Assembly (NCBI GenBank): GCA_009787485.1
Contig: WQWP01000003.1
Coordinates: 1 to 42,075, forward strand
Source: Lentimicrobiaceae bacterium
GTDB taxonomy: Bacteria; Bacteroidota; Bacteroidia; Bacteroidales; WCHB1-69
Length of the DNA: 42,075 nucleotides
Direction of reading: 5' to 3'
Both the position numbers and the translations under genes were made by a program. This document shows, in pieces, positions 64 through 22,017 of this stretch (its first letter is position 1; the number at the start of each line of letters is the position of its first letter). The notes below the pieces were generated by a model. That model was not told the DNA's origin, made no database searches, and worked only from the letters and a program-made list of their open reading frames with translations.

Positions 64-137
64 GGTCCCTTAGCTCAGACGGTTAGAGCATCTGACTCAT
101 AATCAGGGGGTCCTTGGTTCGATTCCAAGAGGGACCA
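64..137 (+). tRNA. tRNA-Met (CAT anticodon; elongator vs Ile2 not resolved)
   Basis: Cloverleaf: acceptor GGTCCCT/AGGGACC, anticodon arm CTGACTCATAATCAG, T-arm CTTGGTTCGATTCCAAG; CCA not fully encoded. Confidence 0.93.
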
Positions 138-138
138 C
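95..138 (+). repeat. attL-like direct repeat (3' half of tRNA-Met)
   Basis: ACTCATAATCAGGGGGTCCTTGGTTCGATTCCAAGAGGGACCAC recurs at 7775-7818 with one mismatch (T124 vs C7804). Confidence 0.92.
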
Positions 139-151
139 AAATGAAAATAAG

Positions 152-183
152 ACAGTTACAAAAACCCTGTAACTGTTTTTTTA
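152..183 (+). terminator. Intrinsic terminator downstream of tRNA-Met (element-borne)
   Basis: ACAGTTAC/GTAACTGT perfect stem (152-159/169-176) followed by T-run. Confidence 0.75.
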
Positions 184-382
184 TTGCTCCTGAACAAATT
201 TTGAACAAACAAATCGTCTCAGTTAGTTTTTCAGGATGATTTCCTATTTTAATTCAAACCGTATTCCCGATATTTTTTCATAAAAATTGTTAAAAAACCG
301 CAACCATTGCAAATTAGTGGATATACATTTTATAATGAGGGGAAGATTCCCCCCTCAGAAATAATATAAACACACACACACC

Positions 383-1624
383 ATGTACAAAACAAAAGAA
401 GAAAGATTGTATTTTTTACAAGATTATCAAAATTTTGATGACATTTATTTAAAACACAGAGACGCAAATTTCAACAAAGGTAATCCACGAAAATATATCA
501 GATGTTCAAAAGAAAGTATTTTAAATTCCAAAATTATAATTTTTAAAAATCAAAAATTCAATTATCTTTGTTTGGACTGCGACAAAGGTATTAGCAAATT
601 AAATGATGAAATTATTGATTTTCTTAATCAGTATAACATAGTTTATTTTATCACACAGGGAAGTTGGACAGAGGGAAAACCGACAGACTCGGCAACGTTA
701 TGTATTCAATATAAAAATTTCAACAACGAAATTCGCAAAAAATTGAACAGACTTTTTATAGTTGTTTCGAGACTTGACGGTGAAATGACATGTGATCCGT
801 TGGCAATTGGAGATCAGATGAAATCGGTTTTCACATATCAAATGGAAAGTAAGTATTACAATAGAGAGGGTGGAAACGTTTTTGATTTAGAGAGATTGAA
901 TGAAATTGCATATTCACATTTTAATAAAAATTGGGATGAGGTAAATCGTTTGGCAAATCAATATAGAAGTGAATCGTATTATCAGAAATATAGAGCAATG
1001 AGAGAGAAAGATTTTGAGGGTATTTGTTTTAGCAAGTTGGAAAAGTATTATCAATATATGAGCAAACACAATTACAATAATTGGTTATTTATTCAAAAAG
1101 AAATTGATGAAGATTTTAATTTGATAATGAAAAAATACAAATCACTGCCATTAGCAAAGAAAATACAAACCGTCCATAAAAAAACATTAATTAGAGATTA
1201 TGTTTTGATAAATTGGTGTAAATGTGATGGTTATACGGAAGATTTAAAATTTTTTGCCGATTTATTGAAGAAAAAATTTAAGATAACATCAAAGAGACAG
1301 ATTTACAAAGTTGCGAAAGAAAAAGAAATACAACCATTCAATATAAGTTCCAAGTATTTAGATTATGTTTCTTTGATTAATGACGAACATTTAATAACAA
1401 TAAAAGACAAATTAAACGATTGCAAAACAAAGACAAGAAAACGTATAAAACCAACAAAGAAACACAAAGAACACAAAAACAAAGGGAAAGTTACAATGTA
1501 TTTTATAGAGAAGAACGGAAAGATTAAAGAAGTAAAATCAAATGAGAAGTCTGCATATTTAAAAAGAGGGTGGACGATTGTTGTAAAACCGCAACTTTTG
1601 CAAAGAGACGAATATACATTATAA
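383..1624 (+). CDS. Putative replication protein / AEP-type primase (replicase-like)
   Basis: Y-x-C-L-D-x-D motif followed by an AEP-like layout (DGEMTCDPLAIGDQ); position next to HTH and integrase genes; distant similarity by eye only. Confidence 0.5.
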   Translation: MYKTKEERLYFLQDYQNFDDIYLKHRDANFNKGNPRKYIRCSKESILNSKIIIFKNQKFNYLCLDCDKGISKLNDEIIDFLNQYNIVYFITQGSWTEGKPTDSATLCIQYKNFNNEIRKKLNRLFIVVSRLDGEMTCDPLAIGDQMKSVFTYQMESKYYNREGGNVFDLERLNEIAYSHFNKNWDEVNRLANQYRSESYYQKYRAMREKDFEGICFSKLEKYYQYMSKHNYNNWLFIQKEIDEDFNLIMKKYKSLPLAKKIQTVHKKTLIRDYVLINWCKCDGYTEDLKFFADLLKKKFKITSKRQIYKVAKEKEIQPFNISSKYLDYVSLINDEHLITIKDKLNDCKTKTRKRIKPTKKHKEHKNKGKVTMYFIEKNGKIKEVKSNEKSAYLKRGWTIVVKPQLLQRDEYTL

Positions 1625-1682
1625 AGGGAAACCAAAGAAAAATTATTGTATATTACACACATAAAATAAAAACATATCAATT

Positions 1683-1979
1683 ATGAGAACAACAGATGAA
1701 AAATTCGTTGTACAATTGACGGTACAACAATTAAAAGAAATTATTTGCGAAGTAATCGCAACATCATTCACAGCAAACACATTGCCAAAATATGAATCAA
1801 CGGCAACGGAACGTGGCAAAAAATTGACTGGACTAAGAGAATTATCAAAACACATCGGTTGCGGTGTGAATAGTGCATTAAAAATCAAAAATGAGGGGAA
1901 AGTTCCATATTCAAAAATTGGCAATAGATTTTATTTTTATTCAAATGAGGTGGATATTGCATTACAACATACGGTATAG
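1683..1979 (+). CDS. Small HTH DNA-binding protein (DUF3853/excisionase-like)
   Basis: Pattern 'LTGLRELSKHIGCGVNSALKIKNEGKVPYSKIGNRFYFYSNEVDIAL' typical of HTH_17/DUF3853 proteins beside integrases. Confidence 0.65.
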   Translation: MRTTDEKFVVQLTVQQLKEIICEVIATSFTANTLPKYESTATERGKKLTGLRELSKHIGCGVNSALKIKNEGKVPYSKIGNRFYFYSNEVDIALQHTV

Positions 1980-2027
1980 TTTTATCGTATTTTTAATTAA
2001 TACAGTCAAAAAAATAAAAAGAATACA

Positions 2028-3332
2028 ATGAAAAAACAGTCAAAGAAAAGTATTGATATTCATAACAAGGAAAGAATACCCGCAATAGAAGAAAGAAATA
2101 TTGGTGGTGTGGGAATAAGATTGATGTATGATACCAGAAATTACAAAAAAGAAGATAGGTGTCTTATTGCCGTTTGTGTAACATATTCATACAAAAGATG
2201 GTATTATCCAACCGGAACGAATTCATCCCTTGATGACTATCTCCGTATAGTAAATGCAGGAACACAGGGAAAATGGTGTGAGATGAAGAAAGATTTAGTT
2301 CGATATTTTAATTATGTAGAAACGGCTGTAAAAGAGTTGATTACAGACGGATTTTCATTAGAAAAATTAAAAGAACGTATTGGAAAGGGAAGCAAAATTG
2401 CCAAAACAGATTTATTCGGTTATTGGGAGGAGATTGCCGAGACGAAACGAAAATATAGAACAAAACAAGGTTATTTAGGTTCATTAAATTCATTCAAAAA
2501 ATTTCGCAATAATGTGAATTTAATGGTAGGGGATGTTACCGAGACGATGATTGAAGATTGGAAAGAGGAAATGGAAAGTATAGGAAATGGGAATACGACA
2601 CAAGCAATTTATTTGCGAAGTTTAAGAGCAATTTTGAATTGTGCAATAGCAGATAATATTATTACGAAAAAACCAAAAATCATATTTCCTGTAAGTAGCA
2701 GACGGACAGATAATTTCATTCCTGTAGCAGATATTTTGAAATTAAAATCGTTTGTTGCTCCTGATGATTGGACAAATGCAGAAAAAAAATGTATTCAGAG
2801 AGCAATTGATTGGTGGTTAATATTATATTGCTGCAATGGATGCAATACGGTTGATTTGGCAGAGTTAAAATGGAATGATAATTATTTTTATGACAATGAA
2901 TTATCGTTCATTAGAAGTAAGATAAGGAGCAAAAAAGAGATAGAGGTAAAAATACCAGTTATACCCGAATTAAAAGAGTTATTGAAAAAATACGGTAGTA
3001 TTCCCGAAAAAAACAAATTAGTATTTCCTCAAATTTTAAGAGATGCAGCAACCGAAAAACAAAAGGTTGACCGTATTCACGGTTTCAATAAAAAGATGAT
3101 TAGAAAATGGTTAGTTTTGCCGTGTGAAAAATTAGGTATTAGAAACATTGGTGCACAATTTGCCCGAAATTCGTTTATTACGACCCTCACACATCACGGA
3201 GTATCAGATAGTTACATTGATCGTGCAGTGGGACATACGGATAACCTTTTGCGAGGTTATCAAGGTGGGTTTTCAAAAAAGAAACGATATGAGTTTAATA
3301 GTCAATTATTTATAGACCCTGAATTAGATTAA
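2028..3332 (+). CDS. Tyrosine recombinase/integrase
   Basis: C-terminal 'ARNSFITTLTHHGVSDSYIDRAVGHTDNLLRGYQG' (R..., HxxR-like, H-T..., Y) and SAM-like N-terminal domain; located inside a tRNA-bounded element. Confidence 0.88.
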   Translation: MKKQSKKSIDIHNKERIPAIEERNIGGVGIRLMYDTRNYKKEDRCLIAVCVTYSYKRWYYPTGTNSSLDDYLRIVNAGTQGKWCEMKKDLVRYFNYVETAVKELITDGFSLEKLKERIGKGSKIAKTDLFGYWEEIAETKRKYRTKQGYLGSLNSFKKFRNNVNLMVGDVTETMIEDWKEEMESIGNGNTTQAIYLRSLRAILNCAIADNIITKKPKIIFPVSSRRTDNFIPVADILKLKSFVAPDDWTNAEKKCIQRAIDWWLILYCCNGCNTVDLAELKWNDNYFYDNELSFIRSKIRSKKEIEVKIPVIPELKELLKKYGSIPEKNKLVFPQILRDAATEKQKVDRIHGFNKKMIRKWLVLPCEKLGIRNIGAQFARNSFITTLTHHGVSDSYIDRAVGHTDNLLRGYQGGFSKKKRYEFNSQLFIDPELD

Positions 3333-3599
3333 TACATTATCGCTATATTTATGCAATTTTGCAAAAGAAAGTAGTTTGTTGTAATTATTTTCGGTTGTAA
3401 TAATTGTATAGGAGTTTGCATCAATTTTAATCGGTTTTAATTCCCCACGACAGATTAGGAGTATCATTTTATCCAACATGGCAATTAGTCCATCGTCGTT
3501 TTTAATATATTCATCAGAATACAAAACATATTTTTTCGTTGCACCCTCATTGACATTTTCGTTAAGAAAATTATCAAATGTTGTATATCCTTTAATCAT
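3324..3599 (-). CDS. Hypothetical protein
   Basis: Intact 91-aa ORF overlapping the integrase 3' end by 9 nt on the opposite strand. Confidence 0.5.
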   Translation of the reverse strand: MIKGYTTFDNFLNENVNEGATKKYVLYSDEYIKNDDGLIAMLDKMILLICRGELKPIKIDANSYTIITTENNYNKLLSFAKLHKYSDNVLI

Positions 3600-3793
3600 A
3601 GTAACCGTATTTTTTGTATATATCCCAATTTAAAATTTCATGTATTTTTGCACCCTGATTATAAACGAAAATTTATTGCATTATGACGTAGAAATAGTCT
3701 GAAAAATTTAATAGTGATTTGCTATTATTCTTCCATCCAATTACGACATTAATTTATTCTTTACGGAATGATTTTGTAAATCATCAAAAAGAT

Positions 3794-3854
3794 GAGGAAC
3801 AATTTTGCTGAAAGATATGTGTCGTAACATGGATGGCAGCAAAATTTGTTCCTC
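3794..3854 (+). repeat. Long imperfect hairpin (17-18 bp stem)
   Basis: GAGGAACAATTTTGCTG (3794-3810) vs CAGCAAAATTTGTTCCTC (3837-3854), one bulge; T-run follows. Confidence 0.75.
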
Positions 3855-3955
3855 ACTATTTTTTAATAAGTTTCAATGTGAGTACAAAAATAATAAAAAA
3901 ATAAATGGAGTTGCCGATAGCCAAAAGTGGAGGCAAAATTTTAAATTTATACAAT

Positions 3956-4180
3956 ATGGTAACGTTTTATGTAGTAAAAGATTATGAAACACCGGAACAT
4001 GCAGGTGCAAGTGGTTTATTTCAATTGATTACAGTTAGTATTCATCGTGATGATGATGAAATTGATGATGTAACAAATGAAGTTGATTCGGGTAAATTTT
4101 TTAGGGATGATGAAGAATTAAAAAAATATTTTTCAAAAGTATTTGAAATAGAAGAGGATATAATGATTGCGGAAGACTAA
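3956..4180 (+). CDS. Hypothetical small acidic protein
   Basis: ORF 3905-4180; internal ATG at 3956 (MVTFYVVKDYETPEHAG...) looks the likelier start. Confidence 0.45.
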   Translation: MVTFYVVKDYETPEHAGASGLFQLITVSIHRDDDEIDDVTNEVDSGKFFRDDEELKKYFSKVFEIEEDIMIAED

Positions 4181-4530
4181 AAAAATTGTTGAAAAAACCG
4201 ATTTATTCGGTGTGATGATTGGTGTTGTGGGTAGGTATGGAGTCAGCAATGAATGATGTTGTGTGTTTAAAACATGTAAATTACATTTGTTTGTTGTATT
4301 ACAATATGTTAGCGGACATGTGTGGGTAAGTGATATGATGTAACGACGTGCAAAAAATTATTATTGATTTAAAAAAAAAAAAAAAACGATGTATAAATGA
4401 TATCATAATTATTGATATTCTTTATTATTAAATTCTAAATAACAACACAAGTCATTGAACCAAAGCAAATTATTTTTTATTTTGAATTTGGCGAAAATAT
4501 GAAATTATCAATTTAAAAACGAACAATATG

Positions 4531-4668
4531 AAAAAGAGAAGGAAACAGTTTGACTTGGAAGTTCAAAACGTAGGTGATGTTTTTTGGATCGGGTACACAA
4601 AGACACCCGAAGACTTACACTGTGATTTTGAATTTAACTTCCGTCAGGGACTGTTTCCTTTTTATTTT
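4531..4668. repeat. Nested inverted-repeat module 1
   Basis: Outer stem AAGGAAACAGT/ACTGTTTCCTT (4539-4549/4650-4660), inner stem 4557-4568/4626-4642, apical hairpin TCGGGT/ACCCGA (4589-4594/4605-4610). Confidence 0.7.
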
Positions 4669-4703
4669 AAGGTTGCAAAAATAGGAAATTATCAATTAAT
4701 AAC

Positions 4704-4849
4704 AAACAAAAACAAAATGGGAGTGTTTCGACTGAGAACCCCCTTCGAAGTAGTTAACACCTCTCAGTTACAAGACTGTAACTTTTCATGGAACAGTGCA
4801 ATGTTTTATAGTTTAAGTTCTGTTTACTTTACTCCCATGTTTTTGTTTT
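4704..4849. repeat. Nested inverted-repeat module 2
   Basis: Outer stem AAACAAAAAC-AAA-ATGGGAGT / ACTCCCATGTTTTTGTTT (4704-4724/4831-4848); inner hairpin ACTGAGA/TCTCAGT (4731-4737/4762-4768); alternative AGTTAC/GTAACT. Confidence 0.7.
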
Positions 4850-4860
4850 AATTTGAAATG

Positions 4861-5021
4861 CAAATGAAAAAACCGGAAATTTTGTTTTATCCAACAGGTT
4901 CCACGATGTATTTAACACATTTGGGCGAGACCTTGATAATCTGCCAGTTGTGCGCAACCATAAGGTTGACAAAATGGAAAAAAAACCTTTGGTTTCCATG
5001 TTTCCGGTTTAATTTCATTTG
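4861..5021. repeat. Nested inverted-repeat module 3
   Basis: Outer stem CAAATGAAA..AACCGGAAA / TTTCCGGTT..TTTCATTTG (4861-4879/5001-5021); inner ATTTTGT/ACAAAAT, CAACC-ATAA-GGTTG, ATGGAAA/TTTCCAT. Confidence 0.72.
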
Positions 5022-5064
5022 AATTTGCAAAAATAGACATATTAATCAATTAAAAACAATAATT

Positions 5065-7626
5065 ATGACAAAAACAATTTTTAAAATTTTATTTCTGTCC
5101 ACCCTACTTTTAATAGGGGTAATAAACACGAACGGACAAACGTGGCCACCTGCAGGAATGCAAGGTGACGGACTAACCGCAGAAACTGCATGGGAAATCA
5201 CCACACTAAGTCATTTATTTGCACTATCCAATCATGTGAACGATTTTGATAATCAAACATCGGGTAAGTATTACAAACTGATGAACGATATTGACATGTC
5301 GGGTATTTCATTTATCCCAATAGGTGGAATGCAGTTTGAGTGGACCTATACATATACTGCATTTCGTGGAAATTTTGACGGTAACGGTAAAGTAATCAAA
5401 AATCTAACTATCAATAGTTCATCAGACAGGGTAGGATTATTTGGACACGTTGCCAGCAATGCAACATTTCAAAATCTCGGTTTGGAAAACGTCAATATCA
5501 CAGGTGGTCAATACATAGGTGGATTGATTGGAACGGTCGGTGCAATGAGAGGGCAAGCAACAACAACAGGAAACATCACAATCTCAAACTGTTATGTTAC
5601 AGGCAAAGTCACAGGTACACAATCCGTTGGCGGTCTCGTTGGGTACGTCGCACCCAATTCCACATGCAACATAACCAATTGTTACACTGAATGTAACGTA
5701 ACCGCCAACAATTTTGTAGGTGGACTGGTAGGTGATAGTCGCGGCGACATTTCCTATTGTTACACGACGGGAACAGTCAAGGGGAACGGAACTGAGTACA
5801 TTAATGCAGTTGGCGGTGTAATCGGCAGGTATCTTTCCGGAACAGTCAAAAACGTTGTTGCCGCAAATGACACCGTAATCAATTATGGTATAGGTATTGT
5901 TGGTCGTGTAATCGGTAGCAATCAAGGTACGACACCCTTAAATTGTTACGGTCTCACGACAATGGTAATCGCAAACAATAACGGTGTCAACGGTACTAAC
6001 GCAACAATCACCCAATTACAGTCCCAATCCTTTTACACAACCCCATCTAATTGGAACACATCCCCGTGGAATTTCACAACAATCTGGACAATCTGCAATG
6101 CCAAATCGTTCCCTTATTTCCAACATCAAAATAAACCTTGCCAATACACCATAACCCCATCGGCAACCGCAGGTGGTACAATTTCCCCAAACACCCCACA
6201 ATCCGTACCGGTAAACGGAAACATCACGTTCACGGCAACCCCCACCGGCAATTGCAAAGAGGTGGATGTGTGGAAAATTGACAACACGGTGGTGCAAACA
6301 GGTGGCAACACCTACACAATCCAAAATGTGCAATCCGACCAAACAATTTCCGTTTCCTTCAAAACAATAATTTACACGTTAACACCGTTGCCGGCAACGA
6401 ATGGGACAATTTCCCCGAACACCCCCCAAACGGTAGAATGTGATGGATCGCTAACAACAACATCTTTTTATGCGACCCCCAATACAAATTATGAGGTGGA
6501 TAAATGGTATGTGGACGATGTACCCGTTCAAAACGGTGGCAATTCATTTGTTTTTTACAACTGGACCCTCACTGCTAACCACACGATTGAGGTAACGTTC
6601 AAATATGTACCACCAACGTACACCGTAACGTTTGCATCGAACGGTGGCAACGGCAATATGACACCGCAAACGTTCACAGAGGGTGTACCGCAATCACTTT
6701 CACAAAATCAATTTTACCGAAACGGTTATGATTTCAAAAATTGGAACACATCGGCAAACGGCAACGGAACAACCTATCAAAACGGACAAACGATAACCGT
6801 TTCCGCAAATATGACCTTATTTGCACAATGGGAAACAACCCATATTCCCGTAACGAATATAACGAACGTTCCCACAACGGCAACCGCAAACGTTCCCTTG
6901 ACCCTTACAGGAACAGTTGTACCTTCAAATGCAACCTATAAAACAATCGTTTGGACGGTAAAATCGGCAGGAACGACAGGTGCAAAAATCGTTGGTAACG
7001 TTTTTACGGCAACCTCATCGGGAACGGCAACCATAACGGCAACCATACAAAACGGTATTTCAATGGGTGTCCCATACACAAAAGATTTCACAATAACCGT
7101 GAATACCGATTTTGTGAAAGTGACTGATATAACGAACGTCCCCACATCGGCAACCGCAAACGTTCCCTTGACCTTGACGGCAACCGTATTACCAACCAAT
7201 GCAACAAATCAATCAATCATTTGGACAGTGAAATCGCAGGGAACAACCTCCGCAACCATAAATGGCAATACGTTTTTGGCAACCTCATCGGGAACGGCAA
7301 CCATAACGGCAACCATACAAAACGGTGTTGCCGTGGGGACTCCGTTTACCAAAGATTTCAACATCAAGGTGGACACCGTTGTTGGTATTGCCGAAAACAC
7401 CCTCATAAATTTTCGGGTATATCCCAACCCGACAACCGATTACATTACAATTGACAATGAGACTAATTTCACACAAATGGCTATCATTTATGACATCAGA
7501 GGGAGTATTGTAATTTCGGCAATAATTTCCCCATTTGACAAAACCAAAGTGAATATGGGACATTTATCGGTGGGAATGTATGTATTGAGGGTAGGAAATG
7601 AAACGATGAAAATTTTAAAGGAATAA
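5065..7626 (+). CDS. T9SS-exported surface protein: GLUG motifs, InlB-type (Listeria-Bacteroides) repeats, two Ig-like repeats, T9SS type A sorting domain
   Basis: Signal peptide MTKTIFKILFLSTLLLIGVINTNG; GLUG-like 'VGGLVGYV...NCY'; 'YTVTFASNGGNGNMTPQTFTEG...W'; C-terminus 'FRVYPNPTTDYITI...GMYVLRVGNETMKILKE'. Confidence 0.85.
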   Translation: MTKTIFKILFLSTLLLIGVINTNGQTWPPAGMQGDGLTAETAWEITTLSHLFALSNHVNDFDNQTSGKYYKLMNDIDMSGISFIPIGGMQFEWTYTYTAFRGNFDGNGKVIKNLTINSSSDRVGLFGHVASNATFQNLGLENVNITGGQYIGGLIGTVGAMRGQATTTGNITISNCYVTGKVTGTQSVGGLVGYVAPNSTCNITNCYTECNVTANNFVGGLVGDSRGDISYCYTTGTVKGNGTEYINAVGGVIGRYLSGTVKNVVAANDTVINYGIGIVGRVIGSNQGTTPLNCYGLTTMVIANNNGVNGTNATITQLQSQSFYTTPSNWNTSPWNFTTIWTICNAKSFPYFQHQNKPCQYTITPSATAGGTISPNTPQSVPVNGNITFTATPTGNCKEVDVWKIDNTVVQTGGNTYTIQNVQSDQTISVSFKTIIYTLTPLPATNGTISPNTPQTVECDGSLTTTSFYATPNTNYEVDKWYVDDVPVQNGGNSFVFYNWTLTANHTIEVTFKYVPPTYTVTFASNGGNGNMTPQTFTEGVPQSLSQNQFYRNGYDFKNWNTSANGNGTTYQNGQTITVSANMTLFAQWETTHIPVTNITNVPTTATANVPLTLTGTVVPSNATYKTIVWTVKSAGTTGAKIVGNVFTATSSGTATITATIQNGISMGVPYTKDFTITVNTDFVKVTDITNVPTSATANVPLTLTATVLPTNATNQSIIWTVKSQGTTSATINGNTFLATSSGTATITATIQNGVAVGTPFTKDFNIKVDTVVGIAENTLINFRVYPNPTTDYITIDNETNFTQMAIIYDIRGSIVISAIISPFDKTKVNMGHLSVGMYVLRVGNETMKILKE

Positions 7627-7774
7627 TTTGAACAAATTTTGAACAAGTAATTTGAAGACATTGTAAGAATAGAAAACATAATTTAAAACGAAGTTATGTT
7701 ATAGTCAGCCATTTAGTAACAATATTAACCACAACAGAAGACACACAAAAACAGGAAAAAACAAAACTGATATA

Positions 7775-7818
7775 ACTCATAATCAGGGGGTCCTTGGTTC
7801 GATCCCAAGAGGGACCAC
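7775..7818 (+). repeat. attR-like direct repeat (remnant tRNA-Met 3' half)
   Basis: 44-bp repeat of 95-138 with one mismatch; no tRNA 5' half upstream. Confidence 0.92.
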
Positions 7819-9244: not shown

Positions 9245-12200
9245 TTACTTCTTAACAAAACTCTTCACTCCCGTGCGGTCTCCTTCTATTACACGAATGA
9301 AGTAAGTTCCTGCGGAAAGTGTAGTGATGTTGATGTCGAATATAGCTTCATCGGTTTCATATTTGGCAATATGCATACCCATGGCGTTATATACTTCAAT
9401 GGTAGCCGGCGCCGTAGCAGTACGTTTAACGGTAACTTTGTCGGTAGCCGGGTTGGGGAATAGACCGAAAGTAAGATCGTAATCGTTGATACCTAATGGC
9501 AATTTAACTGGTACAATCATATCTTTATCAGCAACAATTACATTGCCGGTTTGTGTAACATACGACAGTGCAGAAACTACCCATGGATATGTTCCGGGAG
9601 GTAAATCTTCAACTACATTACCTTCAATTGGTTCACCGTTAAATTCTATGAAAGCATCCGGTATTGGATTTCCTTCCATATCTGTTACCTCGAATGTTAC
9701 TTTATATAAACCACAAGCAGGATCGGTAATGGTAAACGGTATGGTTGCCATTGTAGATTCGCCGCAAGCAAATACTGAGGTAACACCGGCTACGTGATCG
9801 CCTTTCAGTACACCTGTAAATGTATATTCGGTTTCTGTAGTTTGGGTTACAAACTTACCATCTAAATATACATTGTAGCCGAGGAAGGTCTTCGAGTCGC
9901 TGCCTTTGCCCGGGAAGTCAACAGAAATATCATCTAACATAAAGAACCATGAGTCAACGGAAACTACATTAATAGCCAAATATACATCTTGACCTGCATA
10001 AGCAGTTAAATCAAAACTATACTCTGTCCATGTATTTTCCGGAGCTGAAATATAGGCGTCATCTTGTATGAATGTAAATGCTGCCGGAACCGGATCCGTT
10101 GTTGACACTCCTACTTTAAATCTTTCTAACTGATATACACCTGCATTCGTCCGATAAGATTTTGCCCAGAATTTTAAATATACACCTGCAGCAATCTTCA
10201 TCTTTGGTAATATCAACCAGTCATCTTGCCAGTATCCGGCATTATCGGAAGACCATGTTGTCAGATATTTATTTCCACTATGCGGCTGTGCATCCGCATC
10301 AGCGCTTAGAGCCGTTTGAGATGGATTAAATACCATATACGATTTTGGTACTGTTGCATTTGGCCAGTTAGCCTGGGTATGACTAAATGTATTTGCCCCA
10401 TCAACATCAATTAAAATATAATCGCCAATATCTGCAATAATGAAATTTTGGTAGCTTTCCATATCATCATAGAAAGGAGTGAACTGAATTTCATTATTCC
10501 ATGTAAAGAGTGCGCTACAGCCATCCACGTCTATTTCTAAACGTACCGGCTCTGTTAATTTATCAAGTACATTAGAGAACGCAGGATCAGACACTACACC
10601 ACCATGGTAGCAAGTTCTTACTGCATATCTGTACATTCCCGGAGCAGCGGTATTCCAACTGTAATCTACAAATCTCAGGTCGGTTACCGGGTTGTTGGTT
10701 AATGTTACCCATGCAGCTTGGTTATTTTCTTCTCCTTTTACAAGACGCCATAGTTTGTAACCGATAGGACCAAGCGCTTTTTCGCCGCCGCGCAACTTAG
10801 AATCATCTGTAACTACAGGCCCTTCCGACGGAGTGCTAATAATTGCAGGACCTTTCGCTAACGTAGTTTGCATGCTTCCTTCCTCTATATTGGCAGAGCG
10901 GCTGGCTCCTTTGTTGGCAACATAGCCAAACTTGCCGCCATCTGTTCCAATAGCGCGAATCATACAGTTTTTAAAGATGCTGCTCTCTCCAAACGGACTA
11001 AATGGGTAAACTGCACTTAAACTGTAATAGTTTCCGTCTGTTACGAAGGGCCATTCAGCGTTAGGAGCATCTGTTCCTACACTGGTAAAGCCACCATTAG
11101 AAGGACTTACGCCGATGAAGAATCCATCAGGACAAGCCACAGGCTCCGGAAATTCGTATTCACACCATTGTAAAGGAGTGTTCGGAATATTCAGAACTTT
11201 AAATATTACCTTGTTTCTATCAGGAATATTGTTGGTTAAACCAAGTACCCATAAATCGTAAGCCGGTTGAACTACATTGGTGGTTGAGTACCAACTCATA
11301 CTGAATAGCGTTGTGCTTTCTCTATGTACAGAGCCTATCACACTTTCGCGCGTACCTACCTCGGGGAATCCTATTTGCTGATCGTTAATTCCGCTATCAT
11401 AACGGAACTCTTTCGTTGGAAGTGCCGGCGTTCCCCAAGTAACTTCTGCATAACAATCTTCAAAATAGTTGGCTTCTACATTTCTTGGTTCTTCAGGTAT
11501 TTCTAATAAGATAATCGGTAAGTTGGTATTTCCAATAATATCTATGGTTGCGGTATAAGGTTGGAAACCTTCTGCCTCAGCATAAATTGTATATGGGCCA
11601 TCGAAAACAAACGGGAATTCAAATAAACCTAACTCAGGGCCGGACTCGGTTTCGTAGGTGTTACATCCACCTTCCAATTTCAATGTAGCGCCGTTAATGA
11701 ATGTTTGTCCATCGGCAGCTTTCACTGTACCAAATACCACACGGGTATGCAGGGAGAAATTACGTACTGTACTCATATTGGCATAAATAGTAACATTAGC
11801 CGTTGCAATAGCTCCGCAGAGATTTGCTTCTATAGCGTAGTTGCCCGGTTTCAGGTACAGGAATCTGTAGAATCCGTCTGCATTGGTCATTGCATAAAGT
11901 GCAGTACCTGTAATTTGTACTTTCACGCCTTCTATCGGAGCGCCTTGGTCATCGCTTACAACTCCGGATAATGAGCCCATTCCTTGCATGTTGAATGTAA
12001 ATCCGGCATTCGGGAGGCCTTGAGTCAGGTCGAGTGTTCCGCCGTTACCGGTTGGATTCAACAGGTCGAACTCAGCGCCACCGGCATCATCTTTGTAAAG
12101 CATTCTTGAACGTCCTGCGAGAGGAGTGCATTTGAATCCATCGGTTGAGTTGCCGTAGCCACTGTCGTATCTTTGAGAGTAAATTACCAAAATTTTACCG

Positions 12201-15200
12201 TTATATTCGTACGGCGTAGCTAATGGAATATTAAAGGTATATTTTCCTGTAGGGAAGCTTCTTATGCCGTCATATACTTCTGTAAAGATATTAGGATCTA
12301 CCCAGCCGGCATTCAGGTTATCAAGATTATCCACTTCACCTATCCATACGCGAATTCTTACACTTTGCAAATTAGTGCCGGTATGGTCAATAGATGCTTG
12401 ATAAGCAATATTGTTGATAATACCGCCATTGGTTCCAAATTCGTGTGGGAAGTATATCGATTGCGACAAACTCTTACGATAGTAGAGGTTGTAAGGCACT
12501 CTTCCTGAGTTATTTGTTGCGTTTGGATCGCCAATCTCGATGATAACCGTACCTTCAGGACTCACTGTTATTGGGAATAGCGGGGTTGTGTTATTTCCAA
12601 GGAACATGTCGCTCTCAAAATCCACATAGCCTTTAATATTTAGTATTCCAACGTGCGCTGCGGTGAAAGCATCTACCGGAACTGTATATTGACCAACGGC
12701 TTCAGGAGCTAAGAATGTGGTGATTTCGCTTTCTCCCAACAATTCATTGTCTTCTGTTAATACTTGAAGTTTAAAGTTGGTTACAGGGTTAATCCCTTTG
12801 TTCTTAACAGTTATGGTATAATCATAACTGTTTCCTACAGTTGGATTAGGTCCGGCAATTGATATGGCTTCCATATCTATATCAAAAATGCCTTCCAATT
12901 TTACTTCGTCAACATAGAGGTTAAATTGATTAGCAATAGAATAGCAATAATATCCCAGATGTAAAATTCCTGCAGGAAGAACTACTACAAATTCTGCATT
13001 AAGCATATTTCCGCCTGTACCGCTAATCGCTGTATAGTCGTGTATCACATTAGTTTGTGCAGCAACGGTATTGCTGGCTCCCCAAGTTACGCGCAATCTT
13101 TCCAGGTATGAAGTGGAGTTGGTGCCATACTTGAATGTCAGTCTGTATTCTCCTGCGGCAGGTACCATAATCGGAGGTGAAATCATCCAGTCGTTGGCAG
13201 GAAGTGTAGAATGCCAGGTATATTGTGCCAAACCGTTGTTGGGCGGAGTGGTAGTTGGCGTAGTACGTGTCCAGGTATTACCGCCGTTCAAATCAATTAC
13301 TGTCCATTCGTTGAAAACAGCTTGTGTTTCAAAGTCGCAGAAATAAGGAATGGTGTAAGGTTCACTTGGTAAACACACCTCATTCGACATCCCTGTATAG
13401 AAGTCATTCGGACAAAGAAGTTCCACTTTATAACAAGCCGCATAAATAGGGCCGAGCGGATCTACATAAGGGCTGGTAGCGCCTGTCATTATAATAGCGC
13501 CATCGCGGTAAATTCTTCCGGTAACTCCGGGCTCATTCGTCCATGAAATTCTATTGCCACCGGCAACGCGGGTAACAGCGATTACAGCAGGATCGCAATC
13601 GGGCACAAATACACAAGGCAAGTCTATCGTTTCGCAAACAAGTTCAGACTCTTGGCCATCGGGGCAAATTGATTTCACACACCACGTATGTCCACCTACC
13701 CAAGGATCGAAATCATTATCAATGTACGATTTTTTCTTTGTGGTGGCAATATGATCGCCATTACGGTAAACCATATATTCTAAGTCGCTGCCCGGGCAAA
13801 CCCTAAGTCTGAGATTAGCTCTGAATTGAGTTCTTGTCATACTTCCTGCAGGCGCTGCCGGATTTATCTGATTGTAGTCGTCGTATGCGTAGATGGTCTT
13901 ATATTGTGTAAGGGTACCTCCTGCCCAACTACTGGAGAACCAACCGGTACCCATGGTTTGGTTGATGGCAATTACAAGATTACCACCGTCATATTCAAAT
14001 GGTTCTTCAAAATCTATGGAAGTCCACTGGTCAGCTGCATTAAATGTAACCGTACCGCTATACATTAATGTCAATTCGGAAAGCGGAATAAATTCGGATG
14101 CAGTAACCGGAGTACCAAATTCGCTTTTGGTCGTAGTTCCTATATAAACCGCCACCGGAATAGTTTTTACCGCATTAACTCCGGTAGTACGATAGCCAAA
14201 TGCTACCCCTGAAATGAGCGCGCCTACAGCATCTCCAATTTCCGACTCATTATAAATGGTTTGCGTATAGGCATTATTATAAGTTGTATATATTGGTGAA
14301 CCGAGGCCTGTTGTAGTACCGGATGGAACCACTAAGCCTTCGCATTCGCCCATATCTTCAGTTACCGTTATAGATTGACATACGCTTTGCGGCCCACAAT
14401 CTTGTGAAGGAGGATAGATAGCTCTTACACAATAGCTATGCTGTCCGGAAGGCGCGAATGAATGGGTGAAAGAAGTAGTATTTACGGTTTCTAACAGCGT
14501 TCCGTTGAAACGTACTTCATATCCTGTAGGTGTGCCGGAGGCAGCCGTCCATGTTAAATTAACACTTTGACCTGGAGCTTGAGTAGCCGTAAGGCCAGAA
14601 ATTGCGGGACATGGGTCTTTGCCTGCACCTGCTATAACAAAAGATTCAACACTTCTCTCTGCGGGGAAAGTTCCGAGAATAGTAAAAGCGCCTGTTGCTT
14701 TATTAATGGTGCGCCACTGTGTTGTATTGGTTGGCAGATCTGGGCTGCGGAAAGCATGATACAAGATACCTGTTTCCGGATCAATATTAATATCCTGAAT
14801 CCAGTTTCCGGCCGGATATGTAGAAATTTGGGTAAATGCTCCGGTTGTTAAATTAAGCGTACCAAAAGTTGATTGAGTTACGCTGAGGTTCAATGCATAG
14901 CAAGTTCCGTCAACATCAATAGCAATATATCTAACTGCATCAGTTGTTGATATTTGAGTAAATATACCGGTTGCAAGGTCAATCGTTCCAAATCGGGCTG
15001 AGGGCTCAGGAAACTCTGTAGCATACGCTATACCGGTAACAGGATTTAATGCCATACTGATACAATCGGGCACCTGGGCGTTATTGGAGTTAATGATAAC
15101 AGTTGCTCCGGTTTCCGGATCCATTTTTCTATAAGAATTAACGTATGGAGCGCTGCTGGTACAAGTTACTATTCCTATTTGACCATCTGCAGGATCATAA

Positions 15201-18200
15201 ACCATAGCCTGATGAGAGAGCGTGATGGCTACAAGTGGTGGCACCGGTGCGTTAAAATCGCCCAGTGTGGTTAAAAATGCAGCGAAAGGAGGAGTGGATG
15301 AAGCCGTGGTATATACGAACGGAGAGGTTTCGCCTCTAAACGGAACAGGCGCAACGAACTCTGTTTGAGGAGTAAATGTCATGGTTCCTGCCGGAGCGTG
15401 TCTTTGCGCAAGACTGTTTGAAGCGTTATTTTGTTCTAATGCCAATCTATCCGCCATTACTTGCAGTTCGCTTTCCGGATCTACTTTAGGCGCTGCTGTT
15501 GTAAATTCAACAGGATCTTCAGTTCCTTTTCCTTTACCGGCAACGTTCCATGTTAATATCGCGCTGCAATCGTTGTCCACGCGGTCGTAATCTACTGTAA
15601 AATTAACGATCGGAAGCGCTTCACACTCATTTCCTTCAACGCAAATTGGTTTTGAAACTTCCACCGGCAGCGATTGGTCGCCTGTTTCGCAAGCCACAGT
15701 TACCGACCAGGTGTGAGGTACATTGTTGTTGAAAGATGCGGTATAAGTAGTGCCTTCGTGATTTGCAACAAGAAGTGCGCCGTCTAAATATATATTGTAG
15801 GTAACATCTCCGGGGGTAGGACCATCAGGACTGGTTATTAAAACATCATCAATAAATGCGTCATCGCCATCCCACTCATAAGTAAAGTCATGGAATCCCA
15901 AATAGTAGGTTCCGCTTGTTGTAGGTGTAAAAGTGTAAGTAATTTGCGTCCAATTGGCAAAGTATACATTGAGATTTTTATACACTTCCACACCGCTATT
16001 CATTGCTGAAATGGTTGGATTTTGGGCTATTTTTACTTCAAAGCGATTTCCATCACCGGCATTATATCCCATCAGCGCCCAAAAACTTATTGTATAGGGA
16101 ACACCTTGTGTTAGAGCAACACCGGGGCTAAACATCCACGCATCTTTATCAGCTTCGTCATCCCACCAGCAAGCAGCTGCTTGGTCTCCGGTATATGCTT
16201 GCCAATCATCAACAAACCACCACCAGCCATCGCCAACAGATGTTTCTGTCCAGCCGTCCGGCAAATCAAAAACATCAGCATCTTCAAATCCTTCCGAAAG
16301 AAGAATGCCTTTAGAATAATTAGGAGCTAAGCCGGGTGTATTGTTACGTTCAGCTCTTTTTTGAAGTATCGTTTCTTTTTTTACCGATTTTTCTTTTTCG
16401 CTTTTCTCAACCCGAATATAATCAGGGTTTGTGGCGCCTTTTCCTTTCGCCGGCGCCGTCCACGACAATGTTGCAGAATTACATGCATTGTTGTAAGCAA
16501 CGGTTAAACCTGTTGCGGGGTCGCAATCGCCTGATGGCGGTTGGCAAATTGGTTTTGCTACTGTTACCGGATCTGATTCGCCGCCATCTTCGCAAACTAC
16601 TTTCACCGACCATGTATGAGGTACATTGTTTTCGAAAGTTGCGGTATAATTAGTGGCTGCAGTTGTGGTAAGTAGTGTACTGCCTCTATATACATTATAT
16701 GTAACATTTCCGGGGGCAGTTCCACCTGTTATTTGTGCATATCCGTTTCCTGAGGGGTCTGGGTTCGCCACAAAGTTAGGTTCGCCGAATTTGATGGTAA
16801 TTCCGTTTGTAACTCCATCAATATTTCCGGAGCCTGCGCCGCCGCCGCCGCCCCAATGTCCTGCGCCGCCGCCATACCAGCCGCCGCCGCCGGCACAACC
16901 GCCTAAACTACCATTATAACCGCCGCCAGTTCCAAAACCGCTGGGGGGTACATTATAACTGAGCATCTGTGTGGCACCTGCGCCACCGGCTGTTTGTGTG
17001 CCACCTTGTCCGAGATTTGCTGGTGCTCTGGAAGAAGTACCGTCGCCGCCGGTTAAACCGCCGCCGGCGCCACCATGACTGTTTACATATGAATTGTAAC
17101 CGTCGGCGCCACCGCCACCGCCGCCAACAATGATTCTGTTGGCATAAGTGTCGTTTTGGGTGGTTCTTATATCTGTTCCGCCGCCGCCGGTACCTCCGTC
17201 GTTACCGGCAGAAAATGTTCCTGTAATAACGCCGCCACCGTTCCAGCCGCCTGCAGCCGTTCCGGGTCCTGTAGAAGTACCTCCCTTTCCGCCAACATAA
17301 ACATAATAGGTTGTGGGCGCTGTAACATTAATCGTTCCTTTTGAGTATCCTCCCTTACCTCCTGATCCATGTTTGGCATTTCCGCCATCGGCGCCCCAAA
17401 CTTCAATTTCGTAAGTTCCGGGTTGCAGCTCTACGGGTTGCGGTGCGCCTGTGTAGGAGAAAATTTGGGTGTTCGTGCTTTTGCCGGCCGGGGCTGTCCA
17501 CGACAATGTCGCAGAATTACAGTTTAAGTTGTAATTAACAGCTAAGTTTGTTGCGGGGTTGCACTCGCCGGGCTCATCTCCACCTTCACAGAAATTGAAT
17601 TTTATATTCGGACGGTTGGTGAGTCTTGTTCCGGTACCCGGGGCTGTTGGATCATAAACACTGCCATCTCTTCTTGCGTGTATGGTTTTTTCCCCACTGG
17701 TAGCTGTTCCGTTCCAAAGCGGGGTGGTAGTGCTGCCTATATAAGCGTTAATTCCATTTTTAAAGTTTACAGCTACTACAACATTATTGCCACTATAAAC
17801 AAATGGAACATCAAGTTCAATATATATCCAACCTGCTTCACATACCACAGGCCCGTTATATACTAATTCCATATCAGCCGGCAACACCCAATCGGTAGTG
17901 GAGGCAAAAGTGGTCTTGGTGGTATTTCCCAAATAAATATCCACATTGGGGAAAGTAAAAGGCGTATGAATATATTGGAAGTTGAGCGCTGTGATTTCAC
18001 CTGAACTGCCATATCCAATCTCCGCAGCATCATATATTTGTTGCGCGTATGAAAAATAGTTGAACGATCCTATTGGAGCTGCAGGCATTCCTACTGTTCC
18101 TTCGCCCACTTGATAGGGCACTTCGGTTTCTTGACAGGTATGATATTTGCAGGGCTCCATAGTTGCGCTCATGGGGTCAGATTCGCCCTGTTCGCAAACC

Positions 18201-20896: not shown

Positions 20897-21264
20897 AATG
20901 AATAAATTTTGGTTAATAATTATTTTGGTTTGATTTTTATGTGATTTTTTAGTTAGCTTCTTTATTATATAATTAGCCTGCAAAAATACATTTTTTCATA
21001 TATTAACTATTGATTGTTGATTTTTTTGTTATTTGTGGATATTTTTTTTGAGGGTAAAGATTGAGCCCAAAGTAAAATTGAACCGGAGAAGTCGAAAAAA
21101 TGCCTAATCCCGAAGAAAAAATGCAAATTGCAGATAAAAACTGCTTATTTTTCGTGTTTTTTAACATATTGATTATTAGTAAAATAATTTATTGAAATTG
21201 ATTTTTGAACGATTCTTTTTATATTTTTGCCGCGTTAATGAAATATTATAAAAATATTAAATGT

Positions 21265-21888: not shown

Positions 21889-22017
21889 TAAATCAAGGCA
21901 AAATCTTATTTTAAACTGCTAATATTAAGTATTTTACAATTTGTTTTTAGAAAAAAAGGTAACTCAGGTTTTTCTAAGCAAAAAAAGTATATTTTCGCCG
22001 CCTCATTCAGCAGAAAC

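What the first reader, a model, noticed from the sequence alone, without database searches (positions are those of the whole stretch)
4531..5021. Three tandem nested inverted-repeat modules between element backbone and cargo gene
Seen directly: three consecutive ~140-160 nt units, each closed by a distinct 11-19 bp inverted repeat (4539/4650, 4704/4831, 4861/5001) and containing inner stems and hairpins. Outer stem sequences differ between modules while the architecture is kept, as expected for conserved structure rather than sequence. Related AT-rich leaders recur before module 1 (GAAATTATCAATTTAAAAAC, 4501), before module 2 (GAAATTATCAATTAATAAC, 4685) and before the cargo gene (ATTAATCAATTAAAAAC, 5041). 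Candidate roles: structured ncRNAs, ssDNA hairpins for replication/recombination (origin-like or attC-like), stacked insulators, or invertible DNA.
Basis: partly seen in the sequence, partly recalled or inferred. Interest (0 to 1): 0.72.

Follow-up and report, generated by a model that had tools for sequence, protein, structure and literature searches.

The report
Three hairpin units with reverse-facing promoters
A small mobile DNA element in a Bacteroidota bacterium carries three back-to-back stretches of about 150 bases that each fold into a closed hairpin; two of them begin just where strong promoters on the opposite strand would start an RNA, so they look like candidate small-RNA genes, but no relative could be found to prove it.

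Summary
Three adjacent units (4525-4675, 4700-4853, 4856-5024) each close with an inverted repeat and fold far better than shuffles (best-strand z -5.4, -4.4, -4.7). They lie inside a 7.7 kb tRNA-Met integrative element (44-bp att repeats 95-138 / 7775-7818). In this genome that motif is about 11-fold over-represented and sits before genes and tRNAs. Predicted minus-strand starts (about 4669 and 5021) fall at the outer edges of hairpins 1 and 3. Best reading: a short tandem array of structured small-RNA genes read on the minus strand, divergent from the secreted-protein cargo gene. No relative of the units was found in 105 family genomes or in 382 genomes drawn from the class, nor of the element's first gene in 394 order genomes and an 85,462-species scan. 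Covariation therefore cannot be tested; a coding ORF (4528-4851) or plain terminator hairpins are not excluded. Invertible DNA, attC-like sites and type I toxin-antitoxin find little or no support.

The parts
95..7818 (.). Integrative element: 44-bp tRNA-Met 3' end repeated at 95-138 (attL) and 7775-7818 (attR); contains first gene 383-1624, DUF3853-like 1683-1979, tyrosine integrase 2028-3332, cargo 5065-7626
4525..4675 (-). Unit 1, closed hairpin; predicted minus-strand RNA from about 4669 to about 4531 (U-rich 3' end)
   Evidence: fold z -5.4 (+) / -5.1 (-); promoter at its edge
4700..4853 (.). Unit 2, closed hairpin; no good promoter of its own on the minus strand (degraded TTCATTTGC near 4860)
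   Evidence: fold z -4.4 (+) / -2.7 (-)
4856..5024 (-). Unit 3, closed hairpin; predicted minus-strand RNA from about 5021 to about 4865 (U6), possibly reading on through unit 2
   Evidence: fold z -4.0 (+) / -4.7 (-); promoter at its edge
4674..4683 (-). Promoter -7 element TATTTTTGCA for unit 1
   Evidence: fifth-best matrix score of the 42 kb window; motif validated
5026..5035 (-). Promoter -7 element TATTTTTGCA for unit 3
   Evidence: twelfth-best matrix score of the window
4490..4499 (-). Weaker promoter copy TATTTTCGCC (same letters as the one before tRNA-Glu at 21990), reading into an unstructured AT-rich stretch
   Evidence: score 11.5; stretch 4370-4486 fold z +0.6
4475..4518 (.). Leader repeat copy 1 (minus promoter plus A-rich plus-strand start-codon leader)
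   Evidence: family D1
4659..4702 (.). Leader repeat copy 2
   Evidence: family D1
5012..5055 (.). Leader repeat copy 3, before the cargo gene
   Evidence: family D1
4528..4851 (+). ORF of 107 codons across units 1 and 2; undecided between coding and chance
   Evidence: codon score -0.019 (genes 5th percentile -0.041, off-frame 95th -0.049); no family or relative
4858..5022 (+). ORF of 54 codons across unit 3; no transmembrane-like segment

Best explanation
The region is a short tandem array of structured small-RNA genes carried by a tRNA-Met integrative element and read on the minus strand. Units 1 and 3 have a Bacteroidota housekeeping promoter (TATTTTTGCA) at their right edge, would start transcription at the outer edge of a closing stem, and would end where that stem runs into a U-rich tract that can also serve as terminator; unit 2 has lost its promoter or is read through from unit 3. 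The array probably grew by duplication of a promoter-plus-leader cassette, after which the hairpin bodies diverged. The RNAs most likely act in trans as regulators or decoys. Shown: structure, promoter motif and position, the element. Inferred: transcription, strand, termination, duplication, function.
For: Folding and repeats well beyond shuffles. TATTTTTGCA 124 times in the genome against 11 for the reversed control, its intergenic copies typically 20-60 nt upstream of ORFs, tRNA-Met among them. A matrix from 36 promoters elsewhere in the genome ranks 4683(-) and 5035(-) fifth and twelfth in the window. Predicted starts 4669 and 5021 coincide with the unit edges. No ORF of 100 codons follows on that strand. 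The TTGCAAAAATAG core is identical in two leader copies that are otherwise only 64-77% alike. B. thetaiotaomicron has many intergenic and antisense sRNAs with this promoter type (PMC7366714).
Against: No transcript data. No homologue, so no covariation. Units 1 and 2 fold better on the plus strand. Unit 2 lacks a good minus promoter, and the weaker third promoter copy at 4499 leads into an unstructured stretch. The terminator scan found no standard terminator at the unit ends.
Confidence: 0.42

Rival explanations
1. Bidirectional terminator or insulator hairpins without an RNA function of their own: they separate divergent promoters from the cargo gene and stop read-through, and the minus transcripts are by-products of AT-rich promoters.
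For: A-rich 5' arms and U-rich 3' arms on both strands. The genome is full of intergenic hairpins. PMC7366714 warns that random promoters arise in low-GC genomes.
Against: The units are far longer than needed, with inner structure of 100 nt or more; three in a row is redundant; no standard terminator pattern was found at their ends.
Confidence: 0.27
2. The region codes for one or two small plus-strand proteins (ORF 4528-4851, ORF 4858-5022); the leaders are their translation leaders, and the hairpins are mRNA structure or chance.
For: The ORFs start with ATG after leaders like those of real genes. Codon score of ORF 4528-4851 lies in the overlap of genes and non-genes and is as good as the element's other genes.
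Against: No homologue or profile hit. No plus-strand promoter. Structure prediction without any confidence, though from a single sequence (pLDDT 34). The inverted-repeat arms at both ends of each unit are left unexplained.
Confidence: 0.2
3. Type I toxin-antitoxin-like pairs: short plus-strand ORFs folded by 5'-3' pairing over the start codon, with the minus-strand RNA as antisense antitoxin.
For: Start codons lie in the closing stems and antisense promoters sit at the 3' edges. Seven type I-like pairs are reported in B. thetaiotaomicron (PMC7366714).
Against: Predicted peptides have no transmembrane-like segment (best 17-residue hydropathy 1.25-1.34). No plus promoter.
Confidence: 0.05
4. DNA-level role: invertible promoter segment, recombination (attC-like) hairpins or replication-origin hairpins.
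For: Promoters point away from a surface-protein gene, as in an OFF-phase invertible promoter; the element has a tyrosine integrase.
Against: The enclosing repeats are at chance level (P 0.18). The invertible promoters of PMC8748976 lie immediately downstream of an invertase gene, absent here. The units share no end sequences, as recombination sites would.
Confidence: 0.06

Closest known systems
Bacteroides thetaiotaomicron intergenic and cis-antisense sRNAs (e.g. GibS, 145 nt; PMC7366714)
   Same: Size near 145 nt, AT-rich, intergenic; most of those sRNAs have the TAnnTTTG promoter type; selected antisense RNAs there fold extensively.
   Different: GibS itself is largely unfolded, uses the other promoter motif (PM2) and is single. 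The units here are strongly folded, in tandem, on a mobile element, and without proof of expression.
Dispersed palindromic intergenic repeats of the same genome (REP-like)
   Same: Intergenic long hairpins of 100-170 nt.
   Different: Those are mostly near-perfect palindromes built of recurring motifs; the three units are single-copy and not palindromic by alignment.
Invertible promoters of Bacteroidales (PMC8748976)
   Same: TAnnTTTG promoter between repeats beside a surface gene on an integrated element.
   Different: No invertase next to it; no adequate flanking repeats.

Membership tests
Structured small-RNA gene (Bacteroidota) | housekeeping promoter at the 5' edge | tested here: met
   units 1 and 3 on the minus strand; unit 2 not met
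Structured small-RNA gene (Bacteroidota) | fold more stable than shuffled sequence | tested here: met
Structured small-RNA gene (Bacteroidota) | covariation in homologues | tested here: inconclusive
   no homologue found
Structured small-RNA gene (Bacteroidota) | a discrete transcript | not testable with these tools
   no expression data
Any Rfam family | covariance-model match | tested here: not met
Conserved protein (ORF 4528-4851) | homologues or profile hits | tested here: not met
   DNA searches
Conserved protein (ORF 4528-4851) | gene-like codon usage | tested here: inconclusive
Type I toxin-antitoxin | small peptide with a transmembrane segment | tested here: not met
Invertible promoter | flanking inverted repeats beyond chance | tested here: not met
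Invertible promoter | both orientations in reads | not testable with these tools
   no reads
Integron attC array | integron integrase nearby | tested here: not met
   integrase is a Phage_int_SAM_5 type; integron model E 0.08 only

The most novel reading that the evidence does not exclude
A mobile element carries a tandem battery of diverged, individually promoted, rod-like RNAs of about 150 nt as a new kind of accessory RNA cassette, with members duplicated and exchanged much like gene cassettes.
Probability: 0.1. Interest if true: 0.7.

Novelty: new member of a known kind. Interest (0 to 1): 0.36.

Why it matters
Non-coding cargo of small Bacteroidales elements is little explored, and this gives exact strands and start positions that one RNA-seq experiment could test. 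If several unlike RNAs proved to be maintained in tandem, RNA itself could count as cargo of such elements. At present it is a candidate resting on a single sequence.

Tried and rejected
Rfam at gathering and relaxed thresholds: nothing. DNA search of the units in 105 family genomes: the best hits inspected were promoter or leader stretches and unrelated gene starts (L005 looks like an AMP-ligase-type gene, L013 an unrelated hairpin). 382 class genomes: nothing. Phage and plasmid records: nothing relevant. First gene: no relative in 394 order genomes or the 85,462-species scan. Integrase relatives (22-44% identity, apart from a few short fragments) sit in other elements; an inverted-repeat scan of six of their loci and an ORF listing of the four nearest from the order showed no comparable array. 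Covariance models of units 1 and 3 found only themselves. Structure predictions of the first gene and of ORF 4528-4851 were too poor to use (pLDDT 37 and 34). Inversion between repeats: chance level. Pairing of the units with the element's own gene starts: no clear signal. A first folding script timed out.

Full report
Setting. The window belongs to a 2.26 Mb draft genome of 200 contigs. A tRNA-Met gene at 64-138 has its last 44 bases repeated at 7775-7818. Between them lie a first gene without family (383-1624), a DUF3853-like gene (1683-1979, just under the Pfam cut-off), a tyrosine integrase (2028-3332), two small ORFs (3324-3599 minus, 3905-4180 plus), the region in question, and a secreted repeat protein with a type IX sorting tail (5065-7626). 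It is thus a 7.7 kb integrative element.

Observation. Repeats spanning 100-180 nt are far in excess of dinucleotide shuffles (12 perfect 9-mers against 0.7). Minimum free energies have z-scores of -5.4, -4.4 and -4.7 on the better strand. Closure by itself is not rare in this genome, and the genome holds many long palindromic hairpins of dispersed repeats. The three units differ from most of those in being single-copy and in not being palindromic when aligned with their own reverse complement.

Promoters. The recurring AT-rich leader reads CTATTTTTGCAA on the minus strand. TATTTTTGCA occurs 124 times in the genome, against 11 for the reversed pattern. In the 442 kb examined, its intergenic copies typically lie 20-60 nt upstream of ORFs in the right direction, and one precedes tRNA-Met in this window. 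It matches the published Bacteroides -7 consensus TAnnTTTG (PMC7366714). A matrix built from 36 promoters elsewhere in the genome ranks 4683(-) fifth and 5035(-) twelfth among all positions of the 42 kb window; a third copy at 4499(-) ranks lower but has the same letters, TATTTTCGCC, as the promoter before tRNA-Glu. Taking the start as seven bases past the TTTG (my approximation), transcription would start near 4669 and 5021, at the outer edges of units 1 and 3. No ORF of 100 codons or more begins just downstream on that strand. On the plus strand nothing scores above 5.8 between 3660 and 5100, and nothing above 2 between 4306 and 5089. The plus-strand half of the leader resembles the A-rich stretch before start codons in related genomes, which explains its copy before the cargo gene.

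Relation between units. Units 1 and 2 align slightly better than chance in the same orientation (z 3.0), units 2 and 3 marginally (z 2.0), units 1 and 3 not at all. With the repeated leader this suggests old tandem duplication, but covariance models of units 1 and 3 do not recover the other units. The claim that architecture is conserved while sequence changes therefore rests on three units of uncertain kinship and is not established.

Relatives. None were found for the units, the first gene or the 91-residue ORF 3905-4180. Integrase relatives lie in different elements. The machine holding the viral contigs did not answer. No covariation test is possible at present.

Strand and function. The promoter evidence points to the minus strand; folding energies of units 1 and 2 favour the plus strand. 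Codon usage of ORF 4528-4851 lies in the overlap between genes and non-genes. I prefer tandem structured small-RNA genes on the minus strand (0.42) over bidirectional terminator hairpins (0.27) and coding (0.2). Toxin-antitoxin and DNA-level roles fail specific tests.

Verdict. A real and unusual feature that is plausibly functional RNA, with precise testable predictions, but without comparative support.

Noticed in passing
window 3740-3905: A 155-nt imperfect palindrome (self-reverse-complement z 9.2) with an inverted copy in permuted order: CCATCCA..TTACGACA (3733-3748) and TGAGGAACAA.TTTTGCTG (3793-3810) against 3820-3857. It lies downstream of the second-best promoter of the window (3643 plus strand) and ends in a T run, so it may be a pseudoknotted RNA or a replication or recombination site.
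   Followed up: partly
window 191-208 and 7629-7646: An 18-bp exact direct repeat near both ends of the element, possibly integrase or excisionase arm sites; 12 bases of it recur inverted in the palindrome near 3840-3851.
   Followed up: partly
window 383-1624: The 413-residue first gene of the element has no Pfam, NCBIfam or relative in 394 order genomes; by eye it could be a primase or replication initiator, but the fold prediction was unusable.
   Followed up: partly
window 5065: The cargo gene has no recognisable housekeeping promoter upstream, although three copies of one point the other way.
   Followed up: no
L079 15881 and L076 13801: Two hairpins of about 120-130 nt elsewhere in the genome share ends CCCTTAGTAGC / GCTACTAAGGG with different interiors, perhaps a small mobile hairpin family.
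   Followed up: no
L075 18441 and L087 11321: Nested hairpins sharing outer arms GCAGCTCGGGGT / ACCCCGAGCTGC with different interiors.
   Followed up: no
window 9245-20983: A 3912-residue secreted-type ORF with a C-terminal sorting-like tail on the minus strand just outside the element.
   Followed up: no
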